A stretch of 64,000 nt of DNA from Phycisphaerae bacterium (lineage in GTDB: Bacteria; Planctomycetota; Phycisphaerae; UBA1845; Fen-1342). Below the pieces are notes generated by a model, which was not told the DNA's origin, ran no database searches, and was given only the letters and a program-made list of their open reading frames with translations. A program made the translations under genes and the position numbers. Of this stretch, positions 6,737 to 45,147 are shown in pieces. The stretch lies in contig JANQNU010000058.1 of assembly GCA_028279405.1 (NCBI GenBank), positions 1 to 64,000 on the forward strand. Reading direction: 5' to 3'. Position 1 is the first letter of the stretch; each line of letters opens with the position of its first letter.

Positions 6737-6978
6737 GCGTCCACCTGCCTTTCGGTCGGTTCGGAGCCCGATTTTGCCCCACGTCCAAAGGAGTATACGG
6801 AATTCCGCCCCGGGCGCGAATTATAGATCGAACGCGCGATTATCAGGGCCCCAACGGCTCCATACGCTCGATCGGCAGCACCAGCCCGGGGCCTGCGGAG
6901 AAACTTTGCGTGAATCGACCGTACCGGCGTCGCCCTAATCGTGGACGAATGACAGGGTTTTCACAGGAGCAGCAGACG

Positions 6979-20760: not shown

Positions 20761-21893
20761 GCGCTCGCCTCCTTCGCTGTCGCCGTGGTGCCTTCGTCGG
20801 CCCAGGCGATCGAGAACGAGTCGCCCTGATCCAGGAAGTCCAATGCCTCTTGCACGAGATCCACGGTGATCTCGTCCAATCCGCGATACTCTGCAATTGA
20901 CGTGGCGGTGTCGTAGATTCGCGCCGCGCGGCGTAGATGCCCCTTACCGGGCAGCGTTGCCGCGACACGTAGCATCTTGGCCGCGTCGTTGTGCAGCTTG
21001 ACCCGTCCAGTAGCGAAGACCTGCTTGATCTCGGTGACTGTGTAGAGCTTCTTGCCGCCGCCCTTGCCGCCGGTGGACTGGTGAACTTCCGGAGCGAGGT
21101 CGATCCGCATCCCGACGCGACTCGAAAACTGCGAATAGTGCGGGTCCTCGTCGTCGCTGGTCATCGTGCGGACGTCGATCGTGCCGACGAGCAGGATTGA
21201 TAGCCGTGCGTGGTCGTGCAGATCCATCAAGACTTGCAAGGCGCTGGCACGTAGCAAGTGGGCCTGGTCGATGATCAGGACCCGCCGCGCCTTGACGCTG
21301 GGCGGTTGCACCAAGCGCTCGATCAGCATATCCACCGTCACGCTGCTCGTACTTCGACGGCTCGACGAAGCTTGCCAGATCGCCTTCTTGAGGGCTGTCG
21401 CGCTACGCTGATCGCCCCGCACGGAAACCGCCGTGATTCCGCCGCCGTACTCCGCTTTCAGGGCCTCGATCGTGAGCGACTTCCCGATCCCGGCCGGACC
21501 GGTGCAGATCATGATGTCCGCGCGCCGCCTGAGCTGATCGACGACCGCTTGCATCTTGCGGGCCACGCGCGTCCAGACGAATTCCGCGGGACGCTCGGCG
21601 CGCCGCGCCATCGATTCATCCTCGATCCAGTTGTTGGCGCGAACGAGGAGGCCGTCGTGCGTATCGTCGTGCCCCTGTACATCGAGCGCCGCCTGCAACG
21701 CGTCAGCACGGACGCCAAGGGTCTTGGCGACGTGCTTGAGCTCGATGCCCTCGCGCTTCATGAAGCGCTTGATGTCGCCGATGATTCCACGGCGTGTCTG
21801 ATAGGAAAGCGTGCCATTGGGGGGGACCATCCGTGATTCCCTTCTACGCCGGGCGTCCTGCCCGAGCCTGTCAAACAGATCTCCGTCATTCAT
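20757..21893 (-). CDS. MuB-like AAA+ ATPase (transposition target-selection protein)
   Basis: The 378-residue protein has an N-terminal helix-turn-helix region (about 30-75, like MuB). An AAA+ core follows with Walker A GPAGIGKS (132-139) and Walker B VLIIDQAH (205-212), and the C-terminal lid is helical. In Mu, MuB binds DNA, stimulates the transposase and gives target immunity. It begins 8 bases inside the transposase gene, so the two are translationally coupled. Confidence 0.9.
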   Translation of the reverse strand: MNDGDLFDRLGQDARRRRESRMVPPNGTLSYQTRRGIIGDIKRFMKREGIELKHVAKTLGVRADALQAALDVQGHDDTHDGLLVRANNWIEDESMARRAERPAEFVWTRVARKMQAVVDQLRRRADIMICTGPAGIGKSLTIEALKAEYGGGITAVSVRGDQRSATALKKAIWQASSSRRSTSSVTVDMLIERLVQPPSVKARRVLIIDQAHLLRASALQVLMDLHDHARLSILLVGTIDVRTMTSDDEDPHYSQFSSRVGMRIDLAPEVHQSTGGKGGGKKLYTVTEIKQVFATGRVKLHNDAAKMLRVAATLPGKGHLRRAARIYDTATSIAEYRGLDEITVDLVQEALDFLDQGDSFSIAWADEGTTATAKEASA

Positions 21894-23769
21894 CGTCGTC
21901 GTCCTCGTCGTCGTCGCTGCCGGACAGCGCGCGGAGGGTAAGCGTCAGGTCGTCGTCGCTGCCGTCATCGTCGTCATCGTCGTCGGCATCCGGGCGCGAG
22001 ATCGCCCGCATCAACTCGAAGGGGTCCTCCTCAGTAGGGGGGCGCGTCCGGGCCGGCGTCATCCCCACCGCACCTGGCACGAGCTGCACCGGCCGCGTGA
22101 TCTCCGCGCCGGCAGCCTTCCGAAGTTCGTCAGCGGATGCGTTGATCCGCGTTTGGGCCGCAATCATCGCGTGTTCGGTCAGCGGAATGTGGGCATCGCG
22201 CGCAGCCGGCAGCGCTTGTTTCGCGAGCCGTGCTGCGTTGCGCTTGCTCTTGTGCGCCGCGCGGAGATCCTCGTGCGTCGTGCCGCGAATACGGTCATTC
22301 GTTGCACGAAGCAGTCGACGACCGGCGAGGTCGCAGACGAGGACGTAGCTGGCGTCCAACGGATCGATCCGCAGCATCACCTGCCTGTCACGCATCGCGA
22401 ACAGCTCGGTGTTATGAGCGCCGTAATGGATGCCGTTGTACCGGACACCCTTGCGGGTGACCTTGACCGTGGCGACCGGCATCAGCAGCTCTTCGAGTAG
22501 TTCGTCAGGTGCCGTGCGGCGAGCAATCGGTGGTGCGTCAGCGATCGCACCGTTGAACACCTGGACCGGCGCCAGGCCGTTCATTCCCTCACCGCCATGC
22601 GGAGCCGTGTGATAAACGTCCTCGACCCACTGCCGGAACAACACCGTAGCTTCCGCTAGCGCCGGGACGTGGATGTTCTCGGAGCGAAGGTCAGCGTACA
22701 AACTCTCAGGACGGTTCTCGGGCTTGTTGCCGCAGTAGGTCGGCATGAAGCGCGAGAACTTGTCGCAAACCTCGCGGAACGCTCGTTCGATCGACTTGGA
22801 ACCCGGTTTGTAAGGCTGTGTGAAGTGCGCCTCCACGCCGAGCTGCGCGACGATCCCGCCGACACGTTCTTCGTCGACGCGCGCCTTGGTTTTCTTGCCG
22901 CCGGCGAACCCCTTGCTGCGGTAGTCCTTACCGTTGTCGATCGTGATGCGATTCGGCGCCCCATGTTCCCGCACGCCTTGGCCAAAGCTGGCGATGATGG
23001 TGCCCGAATGCGGTGTCGGCGCGATCAGCCACGCCACGAAGTAGCGGCTTCGCGCGTCCATCCAGGCGGTGAGCCAGGGGCGGATTGGCGCGCCATCGTG
23101 CATAGCCAGGAAATCGAATTGATGGTGGTCGCCGACCCAGTTTTGATTCGGTCGGTAGATCGTGGGATCGAACTGCACACACGGTGCAACATTGGTCTCC
23201 CAATGACGCCTTCCGCGCCGGTGATAGTCCGCGATCGAGCTTGGTAGCTCGCGTTCGACTCGTCGCAGGATCGTGCGGTAGGTCGGCCAAGCGAGGCCGT
23301 TGTCTTCGGCAAACACGCTCGCCATGCGGTAGCAGTCGCGCACCGCACGCCGTTGCTCCGTCAGATAGAGCGCCTTGAAGTGATTCCAGGCTTCCTGGGA
23401 GCAGTGCGTCTCGTTGTCGGATGGCCGGCCACGGTCGTCGACCAGGCCCCGAAGGCCATAGTGCTTGAATGCTGCCGTCCAACGGCGGATGGTGGGGGCA
23501 GAGGGCGGATTGTCGACCTTGTTGGCCAGGTTGCGCACGAACTGCGGCAACGCTCTGCGGCCCGAGATTCCCTCTGCCGCCTTTCGCTCGCGGTAGCCAA
23601 GCCACGCTTGGACGACCGTGTGCCGTCCAAGTGTGGCGGTCCGCTGTTTGTCCGTAAGTGCCGCGAGCGCTTCACCATCCTCGTCCGCGACCAGCCAAGG
23701 CGTCACCACGCGCTCGCCAGTCGGAGCGTCGCCGTGTCGGTCGTCGATTGGATGGGGTTGTGCGGACAC
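21886..23769 (-). CDS. Mu-type DDE transposase (MuA-like)
   Basis: The 627-residue protein has N-terminal helix-turn-helix regions (about 40-180) that would bind the end sites. The rve integrase core carries likely catalytic residues D214 (WVGDHHQFDF), D278 (TIDNGKDYRSKGF) and E328 (KSIERAFREV). A beta-barrel-like part follows (about 440-500, VRYNGIHYGAHN). The tail (about 590-627) is extremely acidic, with runs of Asp. It starts at GTG 23769 after AGGAGCTCAG. The spacing of the triad (64 and 50 residues) is close to that of MuA. It would cut and join both prophage ends. Confidence 0.92.
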   Translation of the reverse strand: MSAQPHPIDDRHGDAPTGERVVTPWLVADEDGEALAALTDKQRTATLGRHTVVQAWLGYRERKAAEGISGRRALPQFVRNLANKVDNPPSAPTIRRWTAAFKHYGLRGLVDDRGRPSDNETHCSQEAWNHFKALYLTEQRRAVRDCYRMASVFAEDNGLAWPTYRTILRRVERELPSSIADYHRRGRRHWETNVAPCVQFDPTIYRPNQNWVGDHHQFDFLAMHDGAPIRPWLTAWMDARSRYFVAWLIAPTPHSGTIIASFGQGVREHGAPNRITIDNGKDYRSKGFAGGKKTKARVDEERVGGIVAQLGVEAHFTQPYKPGSKSIERAFREVCDKFSRFMPTYCGNKPENRPESLYADLRSENIHVPALAEATVLFRQWVEDVYHTAPHGGEGMNGLAPVQVFNGAIADAPPIARRTAPDELLEELLMPVATVKVTRKGVRYNGIHYGAHNTELFAMRDRQVMLRIDPLDASYVLVCDLAGRRLLRATNDRIRGTTHEDLRAAHKSKRNAARLAKQALPAARDAHIPLTEHAMIAAQTRINASADELRKAAGAEITRPVQLVPGAVGMTPARTRPPTEEDPFELMRAISRPDADDDDDDDGSDDDLTLTLRALSGSDDDEDDDDE

Positions 23770-30427: not shown

Positions 30428-30990
30428 GCAAGATCATCAAGCATCCGGGACCACCGAAGCGTGGAAAGAAGCGCGCGCGGCAATGGCAGAAGACGCTGCC
30501 CTACGGACTTCTCGGCGAGGTCCTGAGTGCGATCGACGGCTCGAAAGACGGTGCGCGCCCGATCTTCTCGCGTTTCAATCTCGACGAATACGTCTGCCTA
30601 CGGACGTTTCAGCGGTTCGTGAGCACGCGCCGTCGCCAAACCAAACGCCAGCGCAAGTCGGCGGATGAGTACGTCTCCGAATCGAAGACCACGATCGACG
30701 AGATGTGCATGAGTTCGGTGCGCTACGTCTACCGAAAGTTGATGGCCGACGAGATCCCGAATGCGCGGCTAGGGCCGACGCTGACATCGATCCTTGGCTT
30801 CCGGCTCCTACTCGTGCGCGAGGAGGCCGACAGGCGCGCTCGGGAGATCCACGAAGCGAAGATGAGCGAGGCCCGCAAGAAGCTCAAGAAGGCCGTGGGC
30901 GACTTGACGAAGTCCAAGGGCTGTCCGCCCAGCAAGTCAGAGCTCTACCAGCTGATCGACGACTACATGCGGGGTAAGGCTGATGAGTAG
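30424..30990 (+). CDS. Mu gp27-like small terminase subunit (probable)
   Basis: The 188-residue protein has a basic N-terminus, then YGLLGEVLSAIDGSKDGARPIFSRF and YVCLRTFQRFVSTRR. That is a helix-turn-helix-like order similar to the DUF3486 (Mu gp27) family, followed by helices. It lies directly before the gp28-like large terminase and overlaps it by 8 bases. The identity rests mainly on position and fold pattern. Confidence 0.6.
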   Translation: MSKIIKHPGPPKRGKKRARQWQKTLPYGLLGEVLSAIDGSKDGARPIFSRFNLDEYVCLRTFQRFVSTRRRQTKRQRKSADEYVSESKTTIDEMCMSSVRYVYRKLMADEIPNARLGPTLTSILGFRLLLVREEADRRAREIHEAKMSEARKKLKKAVGDLTKSKGCPPSKSELYQLIDDYMRGKADE

Positions 30991-32464
30991 CCGAGCCGCC
31001 AAACGCAGGCAATCGCGCGCCCAAGCAGAGTCGACGCCGCTGCTGCCGTACCAAGTCGATTGGATCGAGGATCGCGCGCCGCGAAAGATATCCGAAAAGT
31101 CGCGGCGAGTTGGCATCACCTACGTCGAGGCGTATGACGCCTTTAGCGCTCGCATCACGGGCACCGCCAAGCACGACTACTGGATTACGACTGCTGACGG
31201 GCATGCCGCGCTTGAGTTCATCGAGGAGTGTCAGGGGTGGAACAGGCTATATAGCTACGCGGCTCAGCGAGACGACTTCGTAGAGCGCGATCCCGAGACC
31301 GGTGCCGAGTTCACGAACTGGTGTATCCGTTTCCCTTCCGGGGCCAAGATCGGCGCGTTGACAAGCAATCCGCGCCGACTGCGTTCGAAGGGCGGGGACG
31401 GTGCAGCAGACGAGTTCGCGCACCACGATGACCAGGAGAACCTGCATGCCGCGTTAACGCCGGTGTCACGGTGGGTTGGTCAGACGAAGATCATCAGCAG
31501 CCATAACGGCGAAACGTCGGTCTTCAACAGCATCGTGCAAAAGATGCGAGACGTGTACGCGGAGCTAGGGGCGCTGGACGATCGCGGGCGCCCGCGCCGC
31601 GTTGACTGGGCGACACTATCTGCGACTGCCAAGCGCATGAACGTTAGCCCGGTGTACAGCTATCACCGAGTGACGTTGCAGGATGCGATCGACCAAGGAC
31701 TGGTCGAGCGGATCAACGAGATTAACGGTGCGAACCAATCACGCGAAGACTACTACGACGAATGCAAGTCGAGCTGCTTGGACGATGAAGAGTTCCTGCA
31801 GGAGTACATGTGCGTTCCGGGTGTTGGATTGGACGCTCTTCTCCCTTGGGCGCTGATCGAGGCGTGTGAGGACAAGGGTGTACCGAATCCTGACGAGCCG
31901 CTTACCGGCTATAAGGGTGGCTACTGTGCGATCGGGATTGACGTGGGGCGCACGAAGGACCTGACTGTCGTATGGGTGCTGGAGCCGATCGGCGACGTCC
32001 TCTGGACGCGTCAGGTCATGGTGATGCACAACACTCCGATGCCAGAGCAGGAGGCTCGGATCAAGCAGCTCCTGTCTTCGATCCGTTGGTCGACCGTTCT
32101 GATCGACAAAGGGCACGTCGGGTTCGCGCTGTGTGACTATCTGCAGCGCAACGTTGGGGGAGACATCCAGGGGATCGACTTTACGGTCCAATCGAAGAAG
32201 GTCCTTGCGACCGGCCTCAAGCACTGCTTCGAAGACCGCGCCATCCGAATTCCGCACAACAACAAGGAGGTCCGCGACGACCTGCACAGTGTTCGGAAAG
32301 TCGTAACGGCGAGCGGCAACGTCACCTACGTCGCGAAACGCGATAAGAACGGCCACGCCGATCGCTTTTGGGGAGCCGCCCTGGCGGTCAATGCGGCAAC
32401 GGCCGTCGCGGGTAGCGACGTCTACACCTGCAACGGTGTCGATCTTTGGGAGGCGTTGCGATGA
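30983..32464 (+). CDS. Mu gp28-like large terminase subunit
   Basis: The 493-residue packaging motor has an atypical Walker A in ISEKSRRVGIT (about 36-46), Walker B as GAADEFAHHDD (about 140-150) and a coupling block QTKIISSHNGE. The RNase-H-like nuclease begins with YCAIGIDVGRTKDLT (about 314-328). This set is typical of Mu gp28-like terminases. It should package DNA into the procapsid. Its stop overlaps the portal ATG. Confidence 0.88.
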   Translation: MSSRAAKRRQSRAQAESTPLLPYQVDWIEDRAPRKISEKSRRVGITYVEAYDAFSARITGTAKHDYWITTADGHAALEFIEECQGWNRLYSYAAQRDDFVERDPETGAEFTNWCIRFPSGAKIGALTSNPRRLRSKGGDGAADEFAHHDDQENLHAALTPVSRWVGQTKIISSHNGETSVFNSIVQKMRDVYAELGALDDRGRPRRVDWATLSATAKRMNVSPVYSYHRVTLQDAIDQGLVERINEINGANQSREDYYDECKSSCLDDEEFLQEYMCVPGVGLDALLPWALIEACEDKGVPNPDEPLTGYKGGYCAIGIDVGRTKDLTVVWVLEPIGDVLWTRQVMVMHNTPMPEQEARIKQLLSSIRWSTVLIDKGHVGFALCDYLQRNVGGDIQGIDFTVQSKKVLATGLKHCFEDRAIRIPHNNKEVRDDLHSVRKVVTASGNVTYVAKRDKNGHADRFWGAALAVNAATAVAGSDVYTCNGVDLWEALR

Positions 32465-34671
32465 ACCCGCAGACCTTCGCTGGCTCGTTCTTCCGCCGGG
32501 CCGCCGACGTGCTCGACGCCGCTGCAGGCGCTTGGACGGGAGCGTCGTTCGATCAACTGAAGAGCTGGATTCTGCGTCCGGATATGCGCGATCCAGCGCG
32601 CGTCTCCAATCCATATGAGCAGGTCTCTTGGGTCTTCGCCGGCGTCCAGCCAATCATCAACACGATGGCCGGTTTCCCTTGCACCATTTTCGCTGGCGGC
32701 TCTGACCAAGCATTGACCAACGGTGCGGCCTACGAGCTGTTGGACCGACCGCAGCCGCACGAGACATGCTCGATGATGATCGAGCGGCTGGTCGCGTACT
32801 ACGTCCTCACGGGAGAGGCGCACCTGATCTATCAGGACATGGCGGGCCGACCAACATCGATCGGGTCTGAGATCAAGCGGCTGGCGGTCGTCGGCTACAA
32901 CCAAATGCAGCCGCTTCGGGGCGCGAACGGCGAACTCTTGGCATGGCGCTATACGCCGATCGGCGGTTCGCGCTCGGTGACGATCCTTCCCGATGAAGTC
33001 GGCACGTTGAAGCTGTTCAATCCGCGCGATCCGATTCGTGGGTTGAGCAAGCTGAAGGCTGCGACCCTTGGGATCGCCCAGGATTACAACTCGTCCCTCT
33101 ACAACATTGCCGCACTACGCAACGGTGGCTCGCCGGGCGGGATTGTGAGTTTCCCCGAGCGCTCCCTGACACCCGAGCAGCGGGCGCTGCGACGTCGAGA
33201 GATCGAAGCGCGTCACGGTGGAGCGGAGAACGCGAACCGCGTGATGGTCTTGGAGGGCGGCGCGACCTGGCAACAGGTCGCAATGAGCAACGTCGATCTG
33301 AGCATGATCGACCTGCAGAAGCTCGGGCGCGAGGGCATTCTCGCGGCGCTCGGCACGCCTCCGGTGGTCGCTGGTCTATTCGATGCAGCGCACTACAACG
33401 TCGCTCCCGCAGCGCAGGCGATCTTCGTCCGTCACACGCTGATGCCGATCGCTCGTCAGATCCAAAACCTCTTCAACGTCGTCATCCTTCCATTAGTGCA
33501 GCAAGGCGCGCGGCTGCAGATCGATATGTCCGGTCATCCGGCGTTGCAGGAAATCGAGTGGTCGAAGATCGACACCTTCAACAAAATGTTGAGCAACGGC
33601 GTGCCGTATAACGAGGCTTCCACCTTCCTGGGGCTCAAGATTAAGCCGCAGAAGTGGGGCGACACATCCCTTCTGCAAAGCGGATTGCTTCCAGCCAAGG
33701 ACGTTGTCGAGGGCACGGTTTTTAGCGTGCCCGAGTTACCAGTACCGAACGATGACGATGACGAAGATCAGGACGATGATCCAGCCGAGCAAGAGGAGCG
33801 GGATGAAGAGGCCGCGGCACTTGAGCGCTACTATGCCAATCGCTCGGTCCAACGCGACGAGCGTCGAGCGATCGAAGAGGTCACACCATCGATTCGCAGC
33901 CGTTACGCGGCCCATTTCCGTCGACAGTCGGTCCAGATGGTGCGCAACCTGCGCCGCGTTGCGAAGCAAGAGAAGCTCGGCGAGCAGTCCAGCTCTTATA
34001 CGTGGACGAAGGCGGCGAACGACGCGGAACGTATTGCTCGCAAAGTGCTGCTTGATTTAGGACGTGAGCAATCAAGACTGCGAGATTTGGTCCGCGGCTA
34101 CTGGACACCGACCGCTCAAGAAGCCGTCCTGGCTGAGCTCGAACGCTTCGGGATCGAGGGCGAGCAGGCCAAGCGGATCGTCTCCAAACTTCGCGGCGGT
34201 CGTCTCTGGGCGCTCATTCTGCGACGCCAGCAAAGCAAGGTCGCCAACATCGAGCTGGTGACGCGTGCCCGGATCGTGCGCACCCTACGCCAGGGGATTG
34301 ATTCCGGCGAGACCGTTACGCAGCTCGCCGAGCGCATCCAGCACGTCATGAATTCATCGCGCGGCCGCGCCCTGAATATCGCACGAACGGAGGCCGGATC
34401 AGCGGTTACCACCGGCCGCTTCCTGGGGATGGAATCCGCAGGTGTGGACGGCAAGGGCTGGATACCCGGCGCCAACACGCGCCCGACGCACGACGAAGCG
34501 GGACGGGACTACAACCCGCGTTCAAGCCCAATACCGATCGATCGGGCGTTCAGCGTCGGCGCGGACAAGCTGATGTACCCCCGTGATCCCCGCGGCTCGG
34601 CTGCCGAGGTGGTGAACTGCAACTGCACCCTCGTACCCGTGAGGCTCAAGCGACGAAAGGCCGCGGCATGA
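32461..34671 (+). CDS. Fused HK97-type portal and MuF head-morphogenesis protein
   Basis: The 736-residue protein joins two functions normally encoded by separate genes. Residues to about 420 are an HK97-type portal (VSWVFAGVQPIINTMAGFP, YYVLTGEAHLIYQD, GSPGGIVSFP). An acidic linker (NDDDDEDQDDDPAEQEERDEE, about 421-450) follows. The C-terminal 200 residues are a MuF domain (ALNIARTEAGSAV, KGWIPGANTRPTHDEAGRD, LMYPRDPRGSAAEVVNCNCTL). The start at 32461 gives an ATGA overlap with the terminase. Confidence 0.85.
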   Translation: MNPQTFAGSFFRRAADVLDAAAGAWTGASFDQLKSWILRPDMRDPARVSNPYEQVSWVFAGVQPIINTMAGFPCTIFAGGSDQALTNGAAYELLDRPQPHETCSMMIERLVAYYVLTGEAHLIYQDMAGRPTSIGSEIKRLAVVGYNQMQPLRGANGELLAWRYTPIGGSRSVTILPDEVGTLKLFNPRDPIRGLSKLKAATLGIAQDYNSSLYNIAALRNGGSPGGIVSFPERSLTPEQRALRRREIEARHGGAENANRVMVLEGGATWQQVAMSNVDLSMIDLQKLGREGILAALGTPPVVAGLFDAAHYNVAPAAQAIFVRHTLMPIARQIQNLFNVVILPLVQQGARLQIDMSGHPALQEIEWSKIDTFNKMLSNGVPYNEASTFLGLKIKPQKWGDTSLLQSGLLPAKDVVEGTVFSVPELPVPNDDDDEDQDDDPAEQEERDEEAAALERYYANRSVQRDERRAIEEVTPSIRSRYAAHFRRQSVQMVRNLRRVAKQEKLGEQSSSYTWTKAANDAERIARKVLLDLGREQSRLRDLVRGYWTPTAQEAVLAELERFGIEGEQAKRIVSKLRGGRLWALILRRQQSKVANIELVTRARIVRTLRQGIDSGETVTQLAERIQHVMNSSRGRALNIARTEAGSAVTTGRFLGMESAGVDGKGWIPGANTRPTHDEAGRDYNPRSSPIPIDRAFSVGADKLMYPRDPRGSAAEVVNCNCTLVPVRLKRRKAAA

Positions 34672-35612
34672 GTGAGACCATGAACATCGCGCACGGATTC
34701 GACACCAGCAAAAAGCTCCAGCACGCGAGCTACTCGCTGCAAATCGAGACTGCACAGCGCGATGAGCAGGGCAACCTACGAATCAAAGGGCTCGCCAACA
34801 CGTTTGGCGTCATGCGCTCACGGCGCGTGCTACTGCCAAGTGCGTTCAACGACTGGCTCGCCGGCAACAACGGCAACGTCAACATCAACCTGCTTGCCAA
34901 CCATGGTTTCGTTCCCGGCTTCGCTTCTATTGGCAAAGTCGAGACGATGCGGGTTACGAACAAGGGCCTGCAGTTCGAGGGTTTCATCGGCAAGGGAACG
35001 GTGCTGATGGATGAAGCTGCGACCCTCGTCGAGTCCAAGATCCTGGACAGCTTCTCGCTCGGGTGGATGAGCAATCAGAGCCGCGTGGTTTCGCGCGAGG
35101 ACAGCGATCTCGATCCGCACCTCAAGAAGCTGTTCAGCCAGAACAAGGAACTGACGCACCTCTGGGCGTTCTTCCGCGTCGAAGTCGTCGAGCTCAGCCT
35201 CGTCGATGTAGCTGATGACCGCGGTGCAAAGCTCGCGGCCGACTTTCGCCGCGGGCTCCTGGATGATGTGCGCTCGGCGCTACGCGATTCCCAGCCAGCA
35301 ACGAAGACTGGCACTCCGGTGCCAGACAGCGCCGCGGTACAGGATGCTATCGCGACCATCGTCAGGGAACAGATCGCAAGAATGGACGACCGCCTCTCCG
35401 AGTTCAAAGACGAGGTCGTCGGGGCAGTTGAAGGAGTCTTAGCCGATCACGGTGACTATGCAGGATACATGCTCCTCAGTGACGAGGATTCCCCGCGCTC
35501 CTGCACGCACGCTGATGATCGCCAACCGAACGCGGGGAATCGTGACCGAATTGACGTCAAAGGTTTGCGCGCCGACCTGGCGCCACTGATCCAAGGAGCC
35601 AAGGATGGCTAA
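34668..35612 (+). CDS. HK97-family prohead protease, with extended C-terminus
   Basis: The 314-residue protein has the family start (LRIKGLANTFGV...RVLLPSAF), a His in LLANHGFVPG that is the likely catalytic base, and a Ser in ILDSFSLGW. It is longer than usual: after about residue 190 comes a helical, scaffold-like part (IVREQIARMDDRLSEFKDEVV). That part may act as the scaffold, as in fused protease-scaffolds. It overlaps the portal (ATGA) and the capsid gene. Confidence 0.82.
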   Translation: MSETMNIAHGFDTSKKLQHASYSLQIETAQRDEQGNLRIKGLANTFGVMRSRRVLLPSAFNDWLAGNNGNVNINLLANHGFVPGFASIGKVETMRVTNKGLQFEGFIGKGTVLMDEAATLVESKILDSFSLGWMSNQSRVVSREDSDLDPHLKKLFSQNKELTHLWAFFRVEVVELSLVDVADDRGAKLAADFRRGLLDDVRSALRDSQPATKTGTPVPDSAAVQDAIATIVREQIARMDDRLSEFKDEVVGAVEGVLADHGDYAGYMLLSDEDSPRSCTHADDRQPNAGNRDRIDVKGLRADLAPLIQGAKDG

Positions 35613-36915
35613 AACAGCACTGGAGACCCCCAAGTCTCCCCAGGAAGAGGGCCTGGAGAGCCTCGTCGCCGACATGGCGAAGATCGTGAAGCGTCACGAT
35701 CAGGCGCTGAATGAACTCGCCGAGAACGACCGCAAGGACATTGCCGAGCAGGCACGCAAGATCGCCGAGCTCAGCGACAAGGTGGAGCGCACACAGTCTG
35801 ACATTTTGGAACGCTTCCGCGGGTTTGTGGATCGTTACGCGAATTCGACCGGCGGACCGCACGTCGGGTTCTTCCCGGATCACGAGAGTGCGCGCGCGTT
35901 CGGCCGTGCTTGCATTGCGCTTGTCCGCAAGAACACCGCCAAGATCGAGCAATGGAAGCAGGAGGACCCGCTCTTTGCGCGTATGTGCGACGCCTCGACT
36001 GCCTCTATCTCGGGCGACACGGGCGAGGACGGCGACTTCATTCGCGTCGAGAGCGTCGTCCCTGGCATTCTCCGAACCGTCGAGAATTTCGGCGTATTCG
36101 AGCGCAACGTGCGAGTGGTTCCGCTTGGCAGCCAAGACGGTGGTCTGATTCGACGCACCTCGGGTCTGGCAGTCCGGTTTCCGCAGCTGGGGCAAGCACC
36201 GGCCGAGTCGAAGCCGAAGTTTGGAAAAACGAACTTCAGCCTCACGGTCTGGGCCGTCCTTGCGATCGCCGAGAACTCGATGTTCCAGGACAACCTGGTG
36301 ATTGCGCTTGCGGAGTTCATCGTCTCCGAACTGCAACTCGCACTTGCCGAAGGCACTGATCAGTTCGGGTTCGCCGGCGACGGCAGTGATGCACACGGTC
36401 GCGTCACCGGGTTCTTTAACTACACGCCGAGCAACATCGTGATCGCGGATGTGGGCGATAACACGTTCGCCAAGGTCGCGGCCAAGAACATGCACTACCT
36501 CGCGAAGTGCTTCGGAGCGCTGCCCGAGAAGCATCACCAGACCGGAGTTCCGAGCTGGGTGATGAGTCGCTCGATCTTCGCGCTCTACCTGGGCGTGCTC
36601 GACACGACCAACCAACCGATCGTCCACATGATCTCGACGGCGGAGGGGCCGGTATTCCGGATCATGGGCTACCCCATTGTGCTGACTTCGTTCGCGCCGA
36701 CCATCGCGGACTCGGGCGTCAGCAAGACGATGCTCGGCCTCTCGTCTTTGCGTAACGCCTTCGCGATCGCCAACCACGCCGCCGGCGCCGAGCTTCGCAG
36801 CTCGGACCAGGTCAAATGGCTGGAGCTGGAAACGGCGCTGATGCTGCACATTCGACGTGACATCAAGCCGCTTGAGAAGGACGCGACCGTCTGGCTCCAA
36901 ACGGCGGGCAGCTAG
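35605..36915 (+). CDS. HK97-type major capsid protein
   Basis: The 436-residue protein has an N-terminal coiled-coil delta domain (about 1-75, LVADMAKIVKRHDQALNELAE...). The capsid fold follows, with the family signatures FAGDGSDAHGRVTGFFNY, SWVMSRSIFALYLGVLD and IMGYPIVLTSFAP. The N-terminal helix is probably removed by the protease upstream. It starts inside the protease gene end by 8 bases. Confidence 0.88.
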   Translation: MAKTALETPKSPQEEGLESLVADMAKIVKRHDQALNELAENDRKDIAEQARKIAELSDKVERTQSDILERFRGFVDRYANSTGGPHVGFFPDHESARAFGRACIALVRKNTAKIEQWKQEDPLFARMCDASTASISGDTGEDGDFIRVESVVPGILRTVENFGVFERNVRVVPLGSQDGGLIRRTSGLAVRFPQLGQAPAESKPKFGKTNFSLTVWAVLAIAENSMFQDNLVIALAEFIVSELQLALAEGTDQFGFAGDGSDAHGRVTGFFNYTPSNIVIADVGDNTFAKVAAKNMHYLAKCFGALPEKHHQTGVPSWVMSRSIFALYLGVLDTTNQPIVHMISTAEGPVFRIMGYPIVLTSFAPTIADSGVSKTMLGLSSLRNAFAIANHAAGAELRSSDQVKWLELETALMLHIRRDIKPLEKDATVWLQTAGS

Positions 36916-37391: not shown

Positions 37392-37994
37392 GTGCTCGCA
37401 ACGGTAGCACAACTCAAGGACGCCGTCGGCGTGACGAGCACCGAGCACGATACGGAGCTCACGCGCATCCTCGGAGACGTCTCGTCCGCGATCGAGCAGC
37501 ACCTGGGCAACCGGCCGCTGATCCATCCCGGCACGGACGTCACCGAGGACTACGACGGTGGTCTTTTTGATGTGCAATTGCGCCGGTGGCCGATCCCCGA
37601 CGCGCAGGCCGTAACGGTCAAGGTCGCCGTCGATCGCGATTTCGCGTCGGCGACCGACCTAGTGGTCGACGAGGACTATTACCTCGATCGAGCGATGGGA
37701 GTGATTTCGAGGCTGCCTGACCGCACGTGCTGGGAGTCGGGCCGCGGTGTCATCCGTGTTACCTATGCCGGCGGCTACGCCGACCCGAACGCAGACCCGA
37801 CGCCGGCGGGCGTCGCCACGCTACCTGGACATATTCGCCAAGCGGCGTTGTTGCAGGCGGCGCATGAGTGGGATCGCAAACGCAAACCTGGCGCATCGAG
37901 CGAAGGGATGGCCGGGGGTTCGGTTGGTTGGGTTGGGCAGGTCGCACTACTCAAGGGAGTCGGGGAGATGCTGGTGACGGAGAAACGCTGTTGA
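37392..37994 (+). CDS. Head-tail connector protein (gp6-like adaptor)
   Basis: The 200-residue protein starts at GTG 37392 with LATVAQLKDAVGVTSTEHDTELTRILGDVSSAIEQ. That is the helical start of HK97 gp6/SPP1 gp15-type adaptors, followed by RWPIPDAQAVTVKV and a C-terminal helix (IRQAALLQAAHEWDRKR). It would form the ring under the portal. Its stop overlaps the TTG of the next gene. Confidence 0.8.
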   Translation: MLATVAQLKDAVGVTSTEHDTELTRILGDVSSAIEQHLGNRPLIHPGTDVTEDYDGGLFDVQLRRWPIPDAQAVTVKVAVDRDFASATDLVVDEDYYLDRAMGVISRLPDRTCWESGRGVIRVTYAGGYADPNADPTPAGVATLPGHIRQAALLQAAHEWDRKRKPGASSEGMAGGSVGWVGQVALLKGVGEMLVTEKRC

Positions 37995-38575
37995 CGTCGG
38001 TCACGATCAAACCCGATGTCTCCGGCGTCAAGGGCGGTCTTGATGCGATCGTGCGTCAAGTCGCCGAGGCGCTCGCGCAGGGCCTCAACGCGGCAGGACA
38101 GGTCGGCGTGCGGCACGTTGTGCTTGAGGCCGACGCGCGCGGCATCAAGGCGCGTAGTGGTGCTCTGTTCGCGAGCATCAAGAGCCTAGAGATCGACGAT
38201 CTGACGATCGAGGTCGGAGTTCCGGACGCATCGCCGGCGCGCAAATACGCCGGCCTGCTCACGGCCGGCGGTATCCGGCCGAAGAAAGGCCGCGCCTTAA
38301 CAATCCCGATCGGCAAGGGCGCCACGCGCGGCGGCACGGGGCGCTTCACGAGCGTCGCTGACGCCGAGGCCCAGCTCGGCAAGCAGCTCTTCCGTGTCGG
38401 TCGGACGCTGGGATTCAACGACGGCCGCAACAAGTTCCAGCCCGTGTTCGTGTTGGTCTCGCACGTTCGCGGTCGCAACGTCTTGGAGCCGGCGATCGAC
38501 AAGGCCAAGGATGAGATGACCGAAGCCGTGCAACAGGTCGTTGATGAGGTCATCAAGGAGGGCGGACTCGGATGA
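37991..38575 (+). CDS. HK97 gp10-like neck/tail-completion protein (probable)
   Basis: The 194-residue protein probably starts at TTG 37991 (overlap TTGA). It has a long N-terminal helix, the block RHVVLEADARGIKARSGALFASIKSL, and GVPDASPARKYAGLLTAGG. These fit HXXEE/gp10-type tail-completion proteins, and its place between adaptor and next neck protein agrees. Confidence 0.6.
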   Translation: MTSVTIKPDVSGVKGGLDAIVRQVAEALAQGLNAAGQVGVRHVVLEADARGIKARSGALFASIKSLEIDDLTIEVGVPDASPARKYAGLLTAGGIRPKKGRALTIPIGKGATRGGTGRFTSVADAEAQLGKQLFRVGRTLGFNDGRNKFQPVFVLVSHVRGRNVLEPAIDKAKDEMTEAVQQVVDEVIKEGGLG

Positions 38576-39480: not shown

Positions 39481-40833
39481 GTGGCCGACAACGTTCGCAT
39501 ACCAGTCAAGGTCGAAGGCGCTGATCCCGCCAAGCAGGAGCTCCGCGAAGTCGGTCAGGCGGTCGAAAGTGTGGGTAGCGCAGGAAACGCAAGCGCATCC
39601 GGCACACGCCAAGTTGCGTCCGGCGTTGACAGCGTCGGGAAGAGCGCTGGCAAAGCGGCTAGCGGAACCAAGGAAGTCGCCAAAGGTCTCGGCCAGGTCG
39701 ACGATTCCGCCAAGACGGCGGTATCCGGATTGGTGAGCCAGTTCAACCCTGCAATGGGCGCTGCAGTCAATCTGGCGACCGATCTGGCCAAGGGCGCAGG
39801 GGCTATTACGACGAACCTGATCGCTCTTGCGGGTGCCGGTATCGCACTCACTGGAATTGTCGTAGTCGCCCAAGGAATCGCTGATGCTTGGCGTGACGCC
39901 GCCGAACAGGCGCGCAAGCTGCGCGAGCAGCAGCGGAAGCTCACCGAAGAGGGTATTGCCGACCAGGAGCGACTGGCGGATGTCGTCCGCGACGCGGGAA
40001 TCCCTGGCACCGCCGGCGAAGCTCGTGCCATCAGCCGTAGGCTACAGCTCACCGGCATTGAGGAGCGGCTCGCTGATTTGGGTGCTGCTGCGCAGCTTCG
40101 TGCATCGTTGACAGACGACCAGACTCTGCAGTTCATCGCTGGAGCCTTCCTCCAGCAAGTGCAAAGCGGCAGCGGACCTTCCGCTGGCGATCTCCGTACC
40201 CCAAATACTATCAGTCAAATTGTCGGTCGCGGTGGCAGCGATACCGCACAACAGGCTCTCGCGGCGCGTCTGCGCGACACCGGTCCGTTTGCACGCGCGG
40301 AGGCTCCCGCCCTCGGTACGCTTGTCGAAGATGCACGGCAGCGATTGTTCAGTGAAGTAGAGCGCATCATTGCAGACAACAGATTTCGCGATGAACAGCC
40401 CGAGGCTCAGTTGCTTCGTTCCCTCGTTGTGGGCGGAAAGCCCGTAGACGTCGGTAGTGTTTCTGCCGCCCAGCAGCGCGGGATTCTCGCCGGAGTCGAT
40501 TTGCCTCGCACATCGCAGGGGCTTGGTAGGTTCATCTTCGATCGAAACCAAGCTGCACAGGTGACAGAGTTCGTAGTTCGCGAGAATCGTGTCGGCGACA
40601 TGACCGCCGAGGAGCTCTTTCGCCTCTTCCAACGCGCTGCTGGACGCGCCGGTGTCGACCCAATCACGCTTCAGGAGAGTATTCGGAGCGAGACCAGCGA
40701 GCGCGTCATCATCAATTTCCAACAGACCAACGTGAACTCTGCGCAGTTCAACGGCGCCACGCCGCTCGACGCGTTGAGCGAGGACGCGTTGCTCGGCGCG
40801 CAGCCGCGCGTCAACTTCCCGGCGGGACCGTAA
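39481..40833 (+). CDS. Short tape-measure-like protein
   Basis: The 450-residue protein starts at GTG 39481. The N-terminal half is Ala/Gly/Ser/Val rich and repetitive (GTRQVASGVDSVGKSAGKAASGTKEV), followed by two hydrophobic segments (LIALAGAGIALTGIVVVAQGIA) and long helices (AEQARKLREQQRKLTEEG). That is typical of tape-measure proteins. It is short, which would mean a tail of roughly 70 nm if the usual length per residue holds. Confidence 0.7.
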   Translation: MADNVRIPVKVEGADPAKQELREVGQAVESVGSAGNASASGTRQVASGVDSVGKSAGKAASGTKEVAKGLGQVDDSAKTAVSGLVSQFNPAMGAAVNLATDLAKGAGAITTNLIALAGAGIALTGIVVVAQGIADAWRDAAEQARKLREQQRKLTEEGIADQERLADVVRDAGIPGTAGEARAISRRLQLTGIEERLADLGAAAQLRASLTDDQTLQFIAGAFLQQVQSGSGPSAGDLRTPNTISQIVGRGGSDTAQQALAARLRDTGPFARAEAPALGTLVEDARQRLFSEVERIIADNRFRDEQPEAQLLRSLVVGGKPVDVGSVSAAQQRGILAGVDLPRTSQGLGRFIFDRNQAAQVTEFVVRENRVGDMTAEELFRLFQRAAGRAGVDPITLQESIRSETSERVIINFQQTNVNSAQFNGATPLDALSEDALLGAQPRVNFPAGP

Positions 40834-40851: not shown

Positions 40852-41271
40852 ATGCCAGTTGTATTCAACGGTTCAGCGGTCGACGGCAAGACGCCGATAA
40901 CGCTCGCTGCCGGCAACCACAATCTGATCCCTCCGACACAGGCGCAGGCATCCGCCGGACAGCTCGCGATGCGCACGCTCGTATCTCCGATACCGCGGAT
41001 CGATGCCAGCGCTTCGCAGCACTTCGGTGTCGATCCGCAGGACATCATCGTCCGCTACTGGCTCTCGTTCGGAACGGTCGCGCACCTGCAAGCGTTCTAC
41101 GAACTGTTTCGCCAATACCGCGCCGGCCGGTACAGCCTACTCGACGATGTCGGCCAGACGTTCCAGTTCGTGGAGTTTCGTCGCATCGTCCCGGCCGGGA
41201 GACCCGAGACCACGGTCGACAACAAGTTCCTCGCCGAGGGACGCGTCGAGTTCAAGATCATGCAACCGTAG
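40852..41271 (+). CDS. Hypothetical tail protein
   Basis: The 139-residue protein is strand-rich with a central helix (FGTVAHLQAFYELFRQY). It lies between the tape measure and the Acb2/Tad1-like gene. Position suggests a distal tail or adaptor protein; no family is recognised. Confidence 0.5.
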   Translation: MPVVFNGSAVDGKTPITLAAGNHNLIPPTQAQASAGQLAMRTLVSPIPRIDASASQHFGVDPQDIIVRYWLSFGTVAHLQAFYELFRQYRAGRYSLLDDVGQTFQFVEFRRIVPAGRPETTVDNKFLAEGRVEFKIMQP

Positions 41272-41290
41272 ACGGCATCGGAGTTAGCTA

Positions 41291-41746
41291 GTGGACGCGC
41301 GATCGGAAGACTATTGCCCCACTTGTCGTAGGTGTTTACCCAAGGACTGGCCCTGCCCATCGTGCGAAGGCGAAGAGGCGTTGTTTGTCAAAGGAGATCG
41401 CATGTACAGCGACGGAAACCGAATCGTTCAGCAAGCTGGCGAACGCACCGCGGGTGGTGCTTACTACGAGTACCACATCGTCGAGGAGATCGGCCGCGAC
41501 CAGACGCGTCTTCTTGAGTCGATCGAGTTCCAGTCTGCGCCGATTGCGGAGGTTGGTGTTCAGGGTGTCACGAACGAGTGCCTGCTTGCGATCGTCGCGG
41601 ATCGTCTGCAGGAATTCCAGCATGGTTCCCACCCCTGTGACGAGAACCTTGAGGCACTGCATCACATTCGCGATGCGCTCGCTGCGCTTGAGCGTCGCAC
41701 GGCAGCTCGCAAGATGCGTGGTGTCGAGGGCACGAAACAGGAGTAG
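41291..41746 (+). CDS. Candidate Acb2/Tad1-like cyclic-nucleotide sponge with zinc-ribbon start
   Basis: The C-terminal part has the pattern IEFQSAPIAEVGVQGVTNECLLAIVADRLQEFQ, then NLEALHHIRDALAALERRT and GVEGT. That is the core of a widespread phage family annotated Acb2/Tad1-domain; Acb2 and Tad1 bind immune signal molecules of CBASS and Thoeris defence. The N-terminal extension carries four Cys (C9, C12, C22, C25) in a CPxC...CPxC ribbon, unusual for this family. Two starts have good sites: GTG 41291 after GGAG, and ATG 41402 after AAGGAG, giving a form without the ribbon. It sits among tail genes. Confidence 0.6.
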   Translation: MDARSEDYCPTCRRCLPKDWPCPSCEGEEALFVKGDRMYSDGNRIVQQAGERTAGGAYYEYHIVEEIGRDQTRLLESIEFQSAPIAEVGVQGVTNECLLAIVADRLQEFQHGSHPCDENLEALHHIRDALAALERRTAARKMRGVEGTKQE

Positions 41747-41752
41747 TCGCGC

Positions 41753-44161
41753 GTGGGCCTTGTCGGTGCAGACATCCTCTCCGTTGGCCAGTCGCCATCG
41801 TTCGAGCCGTCCGGCGGTATCGCCGACACGGGCGAGGGTGCCAACCCGCGCAACCCTGTGGAGCGCGACCCGCTGGTCGTCACGATCGACGGGCAGATCG
41901 TGCGCTGGCTCGGCGCGGACATTTCGATTGTCCATCGCGTCAACGACTTCCCGCAGGCCACGCTCGGCGTCGCGATCGCTCGCGGCTTTGGTGTCGACAA
42001 CGGCGCTGACGGACATCCCGCGATAGCGCCGCTGCACGAGATCATCAACGACGGGCAGGTCATCGAAATCGGTACGGGTCGCGATGACCTCGCGCTAGAC
42101 GTCAACCTGTTCCGCGGACACGTGGCGCGGCGGTCGCACCGCAACGACGGTCCTGACAGCGCGTCGATCACGTTGGAGCACATCGGCACCGACCTGCACT
42201 ACCTGCCGCGTTTCACCGTTGTCGGGCAGGTGCGCCCGAACGGCGACGGCTACAACGCGGTGATATCTGATCCGGCGGCGCCGATCCCGCTGATGGTCGC
42301 CAAAACGCTTCCTGCGATCTTCAATCTCAACAACCGACCCAACTGTTGGTCGCACCAGGTTGACTATCCCGACGTCGAGCTCGGCCCCGGGGGCGTCACC
42401 GGGACCATGCCGGTCCGCGCGTTCTTTGATGGACAGCGCGCGCCCGATGGTGAGGCGGTCTACTGGTCGTGGGCGCGCGTGTTTGCCTACCTGTTCTATG
42501 TCGCGCGCCGGAACGGCGCCGGTGCCGGTCAGGAGGGCTTCCCAGGGCACTGGGGGGATTCCGAACGGTTCTTCGACTGGAATCTCCTCGACATCATCAA
42601 GGATCGCGAGCTGCTGCAAATCGAGCCCGAGTCAGTCGGGAACCCAGCCAGCCTGCAAGACCCGTGGACGCGTGTGTTGTTGGAGCGCCCCGTCAATCAC
42701 GTCATCGACGGCCTTTCATGGTGGGACGCGCTCAAAGCAACTTGCCTGCGCGCCGGTATCAATTTCGCGTGGGAGCCGCGGCAAGACTCGGCCAATGGCT
42801 ACTGGCACTGGGGCTTGCGATTCTTCCTTGCGGACGCCGATCCGGTCGCACGCGATGGCAACCGCCGCGTACAGATCCGGTTCCCGTCCGATGCGCTCAA
42901 CACACAGCAGCCCCTCGCGAACATTCGACGGTTCGCCGACGCGAGCAGCTTGCAGATCGCAGCCGACTACAGCAAGGTCCGCAACTCCGGCCAAGTCGTG
43001 GGTGGTCCCAATCACTACGAGGTGACCGTGGAACTCGTGCCGGGCTGGCCCGCCAATGGCGACTGGGACGTCGACCCGGGCAGTCAGAGCGCCGTTGATG
43101 CCGCGATTGCGAATATCGGCTCGGCCGGATGGTCAAACAAGTACGACGGCTCCCAACCCGGAAACGTCGGCGCCGACCGACTCGTCGGTCGCTATTGGGT
43201 GCTCAACACACAGGGTCAGTTCTCGGCCGCGCAGTACGGCCGGCTCTTCGGTCCGTTCACGGCCGCGCGTTACGGGCTCTTTGATCTTGCCGACGTCGGT
43301 GCCGGCGAAGGCCAGGGGCGCCGCGGCAAGGGCTTCCCACGACCGCGTCCGTTCGGGCCGCAGGTGACGACGCTGCAAGGCACCAAGCGTAACGAGCCCG
43401 AGGTCGAGGTCAGTTTCAACGGCGGATCGTCGTGGGTCCGTGCCAACCTATCGATCACGGTGCTACGTGTAGACGCCGCGATCGCGATCCGCGAAGCCAA
43501 GCTCGGCGACTTCGTCGATCCTTCCGGCAACACGAGCGAGACGTTCGCGACCGCGTACATCAGGGGCCTGTTGCGTGTGCGGATCACGGCGACCTTGCAG
43601 GGTGACGTCGCGATCGGTGTCGACCGTTTCGTGTCGACGGCCGGCTCCCTTTCCCAGCGTGCCCGGCACCGGCTCTACCTCAAGCGTGACGCGGTAGTCC
43701 TGCGGCGCGAGGACCGCGATGGTTTTGGCGGTGGCAACAGCAAGTACCAGGGCAGCGGCTTCCCTTCGGCCGAGCGGGACGACTTCACGCAAGTCGATCA
43801 CTTCATGGTCAGCGAAATCAATGGCAACGATCGCGTTCCGCACGTCGGCTCGATCGAGCTGCCCGAGATCGTGTTCTATGAGGACCGCAATGGTAATCCC
43901 GACTTCGCTACGGGCTACCGGCCCGGCGACCTGGTCGACGCGATCGTCGCTGAGCCGACCGCAACCGGCGGCGAGTGGGTGCTGCCGCTCGACACGCGGC
44001 CTGGCGAGCGCGGTGCTGTCATCGCGGCGCTGGAGTGGCGCTACAGCGAGGGCACGCCCGAGCGTGGCGGCATGGCCTACAACACGCGTATCCAGCTCGA
44101 GGCGCAGTCTTCCCTCGCACAGTTCAGACAAGGACTCACCTTTCAAGGAGGATCACGGTGA
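41753..44161 (+). CDS. Large tail protein (hub or tip candidate)
   Basis: The 802-residue protein starts at GTG 41753. It is strand-rich, with blocks such as LVVTIDGQIVRWLGADISIVHRVNDFPQ and EVEVSFNGGSSWVRANLSI. The size, position after the tape measure and lack of enzyme motifs suggest a tail hub or tip protein. The N-terminal VTIDG...DISI block resembles the hub-fold start. Its stop overlaps the next GTG. Confidence 0.6.
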   Translation: MGLVGADILSVGQSPSFEPSGGIADTGEGANPRNPVERDPLVVTIDGQIVRWLGADISIVHRVNDFPQATLGVAIARGFGVDNGADGHPAIAPLHEIINDGQVIEIGTGRDDLALDVNLFRGHVARRSHRNDGPDSASITLEHIGTDLHYLPRFTVVGQVRPNGDGYNAVISDPAAPIPLMVAKTLPAIFNLNNRPNCWSHQVDYPDVELGPGGVTGTMPVRAFFDGQRAPDGEAVYWSWARVFAYLFYVARRNGAGAGQEGFPGHWGDSERFFDWNLLDIIKDRELLQIEPESVGNPASLQDPWTRVLLERPVNHVIDGLSWWDALKATCLRAGINFAWEPRQDSANGYWHWGLRFFLADADPVARDGNRRVQIRFPSDALNTQQPLANIRRFADASSLQIAADYSKVRNSGQVVGGPNHYEVTVELVPGWPANGDWDVDPGSQSAVDAAIANIGSAGWSNKYDGSQPGNVGADRLVGRYWVLNTQGQFSAAQYGRLFGPFTAARYGLFDLADVGAGEGQGRRGKGFPRPRPFGPQVTTLQGTKRNEPEVEVSFNGGSSWVRANLSITVLRVDAAIAIREAKLGDFVDPSGNTSETFATAYIRGLLRVRITATLQGDVAIGVDRFVSTAGSLSQRARHRLYLKRDAVVLRREDRDGFGGGNSKYQGSGFPSAERDDFTQVDHFMVSEINGNDRVPHVGSIELPEIVFYEDRNGNPDFATGYRPGDLVDAIVAEPTATGGEWVLPLDTRPGERGAVIAALEWRYSEGTPERGGMAYNTRIQLEAQSSLAQFRQGLTFQGGSR

Positions 44162-45147
44162 CACGTTTCGAACGCTATTCAATGCTCGCGGTGATTGTGC
44201 TGTTGTTGTTCGTGCGCGCGACGTTGGCGCAGGACACCAAGGCTCCGGAGGCCACCGATACCAAGCGTCGCGCGGCGCTGCCGACTCTCGTGCGCACGGT
44301 GGACGATCTACGATCTGCTGCTCGCGGTAAGGGCATCGTGCGCGTGGCGCCGGGCCTCTACCAAGTCGAGCCGCCGTTGATCGTAACTGCAGAGCTTGTC
44401 GGGTTCGGGCAGCCGACTATCGTCGCCAAGACCGGCGGCGAACTATCGATCAAGAGCACATGGTCGGCACTCGTTCGCGTACAGGGCGAAGGCGGCCTCA
44501 ACAACTTCACGATCGACTGCGATGGCAAGGTCGGGCACGGGATCAGCGTCGAGGCTGTCCGCTCACGCATCCACAATGTCCGTGTCCTCAACTTCGCCAC
44601 CAAGGGCATCCGTTGTGTACACGACGGCAAGCGGCCGATCGAGTCCCTTGATTTCGAGAACCTCTACATTGCCTCCAATCGCGGCGTCAACTGGGATCTG
44701 CTCGGTGCCTTTCAGGTCGACTCGCGTAGTCGGCAATGCAAGCGACTACGTGTCCGTGGGATCACGATCCCGCGCAATGGCCTATCGCACTGGCAAGGCA
44801 AGGCGGCGGTCGCGATCAAGCTGGCCGCTGTGGACGACGCGATTGTTGAGGGCTTGCATACCGAATATCGCTGGGTCTTCGGTGAGAACTGCGGCCGCAT
44901 TGAGTTCCGCGATGTCAGCTTCGGGCACGATCCGGAGTTCTATCCCGACACAGGCGCGCTGCGGAATCTGCAATCGACTGACGGGATGTTCCCGCAAACG
45001 CTGATCGTTCGTGGTGTTCGCAAGCTCAAAGGATTCGTCGATCCCAACTTGCCGCGCACGTTGGATGCCGCCGAGGAAGCAGCGCTGATCGGTGTCGATC
45101 CCTACGCGGAAACCAGCTACGACACTGGCGCTACGGTGGGTGATTGA
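44158..45147 (+). CDS. Secreted parallel beta-helix protein in the tail module
   Basis: The 329-residue protein starts at GTG 44158 (GTGA overlap). The body shows pectate-lyase-like beta-helix rungs (GHGISVEAVRSRIHNVRVLNFATKGIRCV, ...LDFENLYIASN). It begins with an apparent Sec signal peptide (basic start, LAVIVLLLFVRATLAQ). Tail spikes do not normally carry one, so the protein may be exported from the lysogen, or this may be a host-derived gene. The catalytic residues of lyases are not recognised. Confidence 0.7.
   Translation: MTRFERYSMLAVIVLLLFVRATLAQDTKAPEATDTKRRAALPTLVRTVDDLRSAARGKGIVRVAPGLYQVEPPLIVTAELVGFGQPTIVAKTGGELSIKSTWSALVRVQGEGGLNNFTIDCDGKVGHGISVEAVRSRIHNVRVLNFATKGIRCVHDGKRPIESLDFENLYIASNRGVNWDLLGAFQVDSRSRQCKRLRVRGITIPRNGLSHWQGKAAVAIKLAAVDDAIVEGLHTEYRWVFGENCGRIEFRDVSFGHDPEFYPDTGALRNLQSTDGMFPQTLIVRGVRKLKGFVDPNLPRTLDAAEEAALIGVDPYAETSYDTGATVGD

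What the first reader, a model, noticed from the sequence alone, without database searches (positions are those of the whole stretch)
41291..41746. Candidate Acb2/Tad1-type anti-defence protein with a zinc-ribbon extension
The C-terminal core matches the widespread phage pattern GPIxEVGVxGVTxExLLAIVxDRLxxFQ...GVEGT, annotated Acb2/Tad1-like. Acb2 and Tad1 sponge signals of CBASS and Thoeris. The four-Cys N-terminus and two good start sites could give two isoforms. The host would be expected to carry such defence.
Basis: partly seen in the sequence, partly recalled or inferred. Interest (0 to 1): 0.68.

Follow-up and report, generated by a model that had tools for sequence, protein, structure and literature searches.

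The report
Prophage Tad1 sponge, possible zinc ribbon
A phage lying dormant in a bacterial chromosome, probably a planctomycete, carries a clear member of the known Tad1 family, proteins that soak up the bacterium's alarm signals during infection, and the same bacterium has an alarm system (CBASS) of the kind such proteins disarm; the zinc-ribbon-like addition at its front end is unproven.

Summary
ORF 41291-41746 encodes a Tad1 homologue: sequence alone finds solved Tad1 proteins (8kbb E 9e-14; CbTad1 7uav E 2e-11; phiKZ gp184 E 1.6e-10). The AlphaFold model has the Tad1 fold, and all 20 Foldseek hits with E<=0.001 are Tad1 (VIA Z 12.5; next unrelated 7.1). It is Tad1, not Acb2. The gene sits in the tail operon of a Mu-like prophage; a sister copy (67% identical, dN/dS about 0.15) lies in another phage-like region of the same genome. 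Most likely function: a cyclic-nucleotide sponge against CBASS; ligand binding is inferred. The N-terminal ribbon (CPTC-x9-CPSC) is in frame with its own ribosome-binding site, but the sister copy lacks it, its codon usage is poor and it has no relatives. One distant phage (L027) has a similar fusion, so a variant is possible. phiKZ injects its Tad1, and many relatives lie beside head or packaging genes, so virion delivery is open.

The parts
41291..41746 (+). tad1 homologue, full ORF, 151 aa (GTG start), between two tail-operon genes (gaps of 19 and 6 nt)
41402..41743 (+). Tad1 core, 114 aa from ATG (M38): strands 37-41, 44-52, 58-68, 71-80; helices 95-111 and 117-143 (numbering of the 151-aa form)
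   Evidence: sister copy starts at the same Met
41291..41401 (+). candidate zinc-ribbon extension, CPTCRRCLPKDWPCPSC, 37 codons; translation not established
41280..41283 (+). GGAG, Shine-Dalgarno-like, 7 nt before GTG 41291
   Evidence: direct reading
41390..41396 (+). AAAGGAG, Shine-Dalgarno-like, 5 nt before ATG 41402; equivalent AAAGGGAG before the sister copy on contig C29
20757..21893 (-). MuB-like transposition protein of the carrying prophage
   Evidence: PHROG 296 E 1.7e-27
21886..23769 (-). MuA-like transposase of the carrying prophage
   Evidence: PHROG 310 E 1.9e-93
30983..32464 (+). terminase large subunit
   Evidence: PHROG 5909 E 3e-32
32446..34671 (+). portal (with head-morphogenesis domain)
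   Evidence: PHROG 2662 E 3.6e-77
34668..35612 (+). head maturation protease
   Evidence: PHROG 80 E 2.8e-11
35605..36915 (+). major capsid protein
   Evidence: PHROG 10 E 2.2e-12
37392..37994 (+). head-tail adaptor
   Evidence: PHROG 442 E 1.5e-21
37868..38575 (+). tail completion or neck protein
   Evidence: PHROG 5 E 4.1e-5
39481..40833 (+). probable tail tape-measure protein (weak match)
   Evidence: PHROG 167 E 2.7e-4
40852..41271 (+). 139-aa gene just upstream of tad1, no family match; tail operon by position
41753..44161 (+). 802-aa gene just downstream of tad1, no family match; tail protein by position

Best explanation
The gene encodes a Tad1-family sponge carried by a Mu-like prophage. 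When the phage replicates in (or re-infects) its host, Tad1 assembles, by analogy with solved Tad1 as a hexamer of dimers, and traps the cyclic nucleotide made by the host's DncV-like CBASS cyclase, so that the patatin-type phospholipase effector is not switched on and the cell survives long enough to make phage. It may also trap gcADPR from any Thoeris-like system. Shown here: family membership by sequence, the fold by prediction, purifying selection between two copies, the prophage setting, and the CBASS operon in the same genome. Inferred: oligomeric state, ligand binding, which ligand, and the anti-CBASS effect. The ATG at 41402 is very likely a functional start; the GTG at 41291, which adds the ribbon, may give a second, longer form.
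For: Sequence hits to experimentally solved Tad1 proteins, including forms crystallised with gcADPR and with cyclic trinucleotides. 37% identity to SBSphiJ7 Tad1; tad1 of SBSphiJ7 inhibits Thoeris (PMC12043709). Predicted fold: Foldseek 7uaw E 2.9e-9, all 20 hits with E<=0.001 are Tad1; VIA Z 12.5 against a next-best unrelated 7.1. Family-wide conserved positions are kept. Sister copy on C29 with dN/dS about 0.15 (0.33/2.19, dS near saturation), 69 of 128 differences at third positions. Host CBASS: cyclase (PADLOC E 5e-72; Pfam SMODS and DncV-like), E2 (E 2e-30) and phospholipase effector (E 1.5e-98) in a row, with intact GS...DxD, GGGIKG, GTSTG and DGG motifs. Tad1 is reported to bind CBASS nucleotides and block CapV and NucC (PMC12043709).
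Against: No ligand or phage assay. The signal made by this host's cyclase is not known. Pfam's Acb2_Tad1_hairpin model, which finds SBSphiJ7 Tad1 (E 2.9e-8) and L027, reports nothing for the window protein. Placement in the tail operon suggests late expression, whereas a sponge would seem most useful early. The branch leading to the two copies is long, so ligand preference may have shifted.
Confidence: 0.8

Rival explanations
1. Virion-delivered sponge: the protein is made late with the tail, packaged into the particle and injected, so that it acts from the start of the next infection. (Compatible with the best explanation; it differs in timing and route.)
For: tad1 lies between tail-operon genes with gaps of 19 and 6 nt. 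The sister copy is in one run of genes with a 2027-aa protein bearing a ddrB-ParB domain, two genes lying between them. L022 has tad1 between the head-tail adaptor and a neck-position gene. Among 101 large neighbours of about 60 other tad1 loci, terminase, portal and head-tail adaptor families are at least as frequent as helicases. phiKZ gp184, found here as a Tad1 homologue, is a virion protein shown to be injected (PMC10449902; PMC13282480).
Against: No proteomics. Genes inserted in late operons need not be virion proteins. phiKZ gp184 is longer (230 aa), and this protein has no recognisable packaging domain.
Confidence: 0.25
2. Two-form variant: a zinc-ribbon-Tad1 fusion (151 aa) from GTG 41291 and a bare Tad1 (114 aa) from ATG 41402, the ribbon adding a partner, nucleic-acid or localisation function.
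For: In frame, own GGAG; starting at 41402 alone would leave 130 nt untranslated in an operon whose neighbouring gaps are 2-30 nt. Two CxxC pairs in an open 37-codon stretch are rare by chance. L027 has an in-frame CPRC-x10-CEAC segment right before the Tad1 start, with a weak double-zinc-ribbon match, E 0.0075.
Against: Ribbon missing in the sister copy; codon usage in the lowest 2%; pLDDT 54-60; no homologue in phages or the host genome above noise. L027 is distant in the tree. Few of the 87 loci showed any in-frame double CxxC before tad1 (L027, L028).
Confidence: 0.3
3. The protein is an Acb2 homologue rather than Tad1.
For: Pfam treats the helical hairpin of Acb2 and Tad1 as one family (PF24729).
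Against: The model has the four-strand sheet that Tad1 has and Acb2 lacks. All confident structure and sequence hits are Tad1.
Confidence: 0.02
4. A Tad1-fold protein repurposed as a structural tail component without ligand binding.
For: Position in the tail operon; long branch.
Against: The sister copy lies among different genes, yet is the closest relative and conserves the core. The gene's slot differs in L022, which looks like a mobile accessory gene, not an obligate tail part.
Confidence: 0.08

Closest known systems
Tad1 (Thoeris anti-defense 1): SBSphiJ7 Tad1, CbTad1 (7uav/7uaw/8kbe), CmTad1 (8kbb-8kbd)
   Same: Same four-strand plus two-helix fold, same conserved core positions, phage or prophage origin
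   Different: About 30-40% identical; tail-operon location in a Mu-like prophage; possible N-terminal ribbon; not found by Pfam PF24729
phiKZ gp184 (8y6v)
   Same: Tad1 domain at the C-terminus preceded by an extension
   Different: 230 aa with a longer, unrelated N-terminal part; a proven injected virion protein, which is not known here
Acb2 (anti-CBASS 2)
   Same: Helical hairpin and the sponge principle
   Different: Acb2 lacks the N-terminal beta-sheet; no chain named Acb2 was hit

Membership tests
Tad1 | Significant sequence similarity to verified Tad1 proteins | tested here: met
   8kbb E 9e-14, 7uav E 2e-11; family profile 1e-37 and 5e-31; 37% identity to SBSphiJ7 Tad1
Tad1 | Four-stranded antiparallel sheet followed by two long C-terminal helices | tested here: met
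   AlphaFold model and structure comparison; definition from PMC12043709
Tad1 | Conserved residues of the helices and C-terminal tail | tested here: met
   F80, Q81, V90, G92, E96, L98, R105, N119, L133, T137, R140, E146, G147 invariant in 57 sequences. That F109 and N119 match the CbTad1 ligand residues F82 and N92 is from memory
Tad1 | Hexamer of dimers | not testable with these tools
   only a monomer was predicted
Tad1 | Binds gcADPR and cyclic di-/trinucleotides; blocks Thoeris or CBASS | not testable with these tools
   needs binding and plaque assays
Tad1 | Match to Pfam PF24729 (Acb2_Tad1_hairpin) | tested here: inconclusive
   no hit for the window protein at E<=10, while SBSphiJ7 Tad1 and L027 hit and L021 falls just under the cut-off; the model covers 58 positions and misses some divergent Tad1
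[quoted passage not shown]
   the model has strands 37-80; definition from PMC12043709
Zinc ribbon | Two CPxC knuckles at suitable spacing | tested here: met
   CPTC-x9-CPSC read from the sequence
Zinc ribbon | Family match or confident fold | tested here: inconclusive
   no Pfam match; pLDDT 54-60
Zinc ribbon | Binds zinc | not testable with these tools
   needs metal analysis

The most novel reading that the evidence does not exclude
A two-form, virion-delivered Tad1: a zinc-ribbon-Tad1 fusion and a bare Tad1 made from one gene in the tail operon, the long form being carried in the particle and injected to disarm CBASS at entry.
Probability: 0.08. Interest if true: 0.6.

Novelty: new member of a known kind. 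Interest (0 to 1): 0.35.

Why it matters
It places a Tad1 sponge in a Mu-like prophage of a probable planctomycete, together with a matching CBASS operon and a second, sister tad1 in the same genome, which gives a natural pair for testing counter-defence in a poorly studied phylum. If the ribbon form or virion delivery were shown, it would extend the phiKZ precedent of injected sponges to ordinary-sized phages.

Tried and rejected
Pfam and NCBIfam gave nothing useful for the protein. An early family search used PF21825, which is an unrelated crAss-phage family. Scans of the viral collection with the protein alone and with the two own copies found no relatives; the 13-sequence alignment was too divergent to search with; a five-sequence alignment gave 80 loci. 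The ThsB_TIR hit in the host is a pentapeptide-repeat-TIR protein with a TIR-TM protein nearby, neither with ThsA, so Thoeris was not claimed. Cas10 was not found. I first thought the structural-operon location unusual; the neighbour survey showed that many relatives sit by terminase and portal genes, so I dropped that claim. The ribbon has no relatives in phage records or the host genome beyond noise. The key Tad1 structure papers (Leavitt 2022 and the 2024 Tad1/Tad2 work) could not be read in the held library. No sigma-70-type promoter was found near the gene, which says little for this host.

Full report
Observation. The ORF at 41291-41746 (+) encodes 151 aa from a GTG. Five cysteines lie in the first 25 residues, two CPxC pairs and one single. 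Two starts with Shine-Dalgarno-like motifs exist, GTG 41291 and ATG 41402.

Family. PHROG 2428 matches residues 47-150 at E 3e-28. Single-sequence search of the PDB with the window protein returns only Tad1 chains and phiKZ gp184, and a 57-row family profile raises these to 1e-37 for CmTad1, 5e-31 for CbTad1 and 2e-27 for gp184. tblastn finds 110 phage records, among them SBSphiJ7 Tad1, 37% identical. The AlphaFold model (mean pLDDT 80.9; 85-98 over most of the core with one loop near 62, 54-60 over the first 30 residues) has four strands and two long helices. All 20 Foldseek matches with E<=0.001 are Tad1; VIA-align gives Z 12.5 for CmTad1 and 12.0 for CbTad1, the next unrelated chain 7.1. 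The Tad1 architecture of four strands plus two helices, as against Acb2's short helix plus two helices, is taken from PMC12043709. The Pfam hairpin model PF24729 misses the window protein though it finds other members.

Setting. The gene belongs to a Mu-like prophage: MuA and MuB on the minus strand, then terminase, portal, protease, capsid, head-tail adaptor, neck and a probable tape-measure gene on the plus strand. tad1 lies 19 nt after a 139-aa gene and 6 nt before an 802-aa gene, neither with a family match; that these are tail genes rests on position.

Second copy. The same genome has a sister at C29:96111-96494(-), 119 aa, 67% identical, grouped with the window copy at 100/100 support on a long stem. 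dN 0.33 and dS 2.19 (near saturation) give a ratio of about 0.15, and 69 of 128 differences are at third positions: purifying selection. Its neighbours differ; downstream, with two genes in between, is a 2027-aa protein with a ddrB-ParB domain. That this region is a prophage is likely from the gene content but was not shown by a capsid or terminase gene, because the contig ends nearby.

Host. The genome holds one 16S gene with an exact match to the EUB338-II probe site. That this site marks Planctomycetales is from memory, so the phylum is probable, not shown. On contig C57 (L113) a cyclase (PADLOC E 5e-72; Pfam SMODS E 3.7e-12 and DncV-like E 1.3e-6), an E2 (E 2e-30) and a patatin phospholipase (E 1.5e-98) stand in a row, with catalytic motifs present. 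This is a CBASS operon of the cyclase-E2-phospholipase type. A ThsA SLOG domain did not pass the cut-off, and Cas10 was not found. A review of published work says that Tad1 sequesters CBASS nucleotides and gcADPR and blocks CapV (PMC12043709); two Tad1 alleles also trigger Panoptes, a system that guards against such sponges (PMC12657218).

The ribbon. For: the stretch is open, in frame, has its own GGAG, fills what would otherwise be a 130-nt gap, and two CxxC pairs in an open 37-codon stretch arise in 0.0135% of random trials. L027, a phage contig, has CPRC-x10-CEAC in frame directly before its Tad1 start, a weak double-zinc-ribbon match (E 0.0075), and no Shine-Dalgarno motif before its internal ATG. 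Against: the sister copy begins at the equivalent of Met38 with nearly the same ribosome-binding site and no ribbon; the synonymous codon score is in the lowest 2%; no relatives are found; L027 is distant in the tree. I give the translated ribbon form about 0.3.

Virion delivery. phiKZ gp184 is injected with the genome (PMC10449902; PMC13282480). Here the gene lies in the late operon; in L022, whose portal, capsid and adaptor are related to the window's, tad1 sits in another late slot, after the head-tail adaptor. Terminase, portal and adaptor families are common among the neighbours of other tad1 genes. In G363, a genome of the same class, tad1 lies instead just before a 761-aa gene followed by a 386-aa one, sizes that suggest a MuA/MuB pair (not checked by a family search). 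Delivery in the particle is therefore possible, about 0.25.

Verdict. An ordinary but well-supported Tad1 in an interesting setting: a new member of a known family. A translated ribbon would make it a new variant.

Noticed in passing
L042:4131-5228, L044:396-1493, L001:2302-3315 (Burkholderia phage FLC9 gp131): In-frame fusion of a cyclophilin-type peptidyl-prolyl isomerase (Pfam PF00160, E 2e-44 in L042 and FLC9) with a C-terminal Tad1 domain; FLC9 is a 322-kb phage.
   Followed up: partly
L027:3405-3872: Phage contig with a CPRC-x10-CEAC segment fused in frame before Tad1, weak double-zinc-ribbon match.
   Followed up: partly
L113:8789-11448 (G000:C57), with a CapP/IrrE-like gene at 6272-7168(-): CBASS operon of the host: DncV-like cyclase, E2, patatin phospholipase; a CapP-like metalloprotease gene (PADLOC E 2e-44) lies nearby on the other strand.
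   Followed up: partly
L114:8240-9424 and L114:5490-6317 (G000:C87): A pentapeptide-repeat-TIR fusion protein and a TIR-TM protein close together, possible defence genes.
   Followed up: partly
window 44164-45147 and L115:5647-6522: A gene without family match is shared by the two tad1-bearing regions (36% identity, E 3e-43), suggesting exchange between the two phages.
   Followed up: no
L115:8377-14460 (G000:C29): 2027-aa protein with a ddrB-ParB domain near the second tad1, possibly a large ejected virion protein.
   Followed up: no
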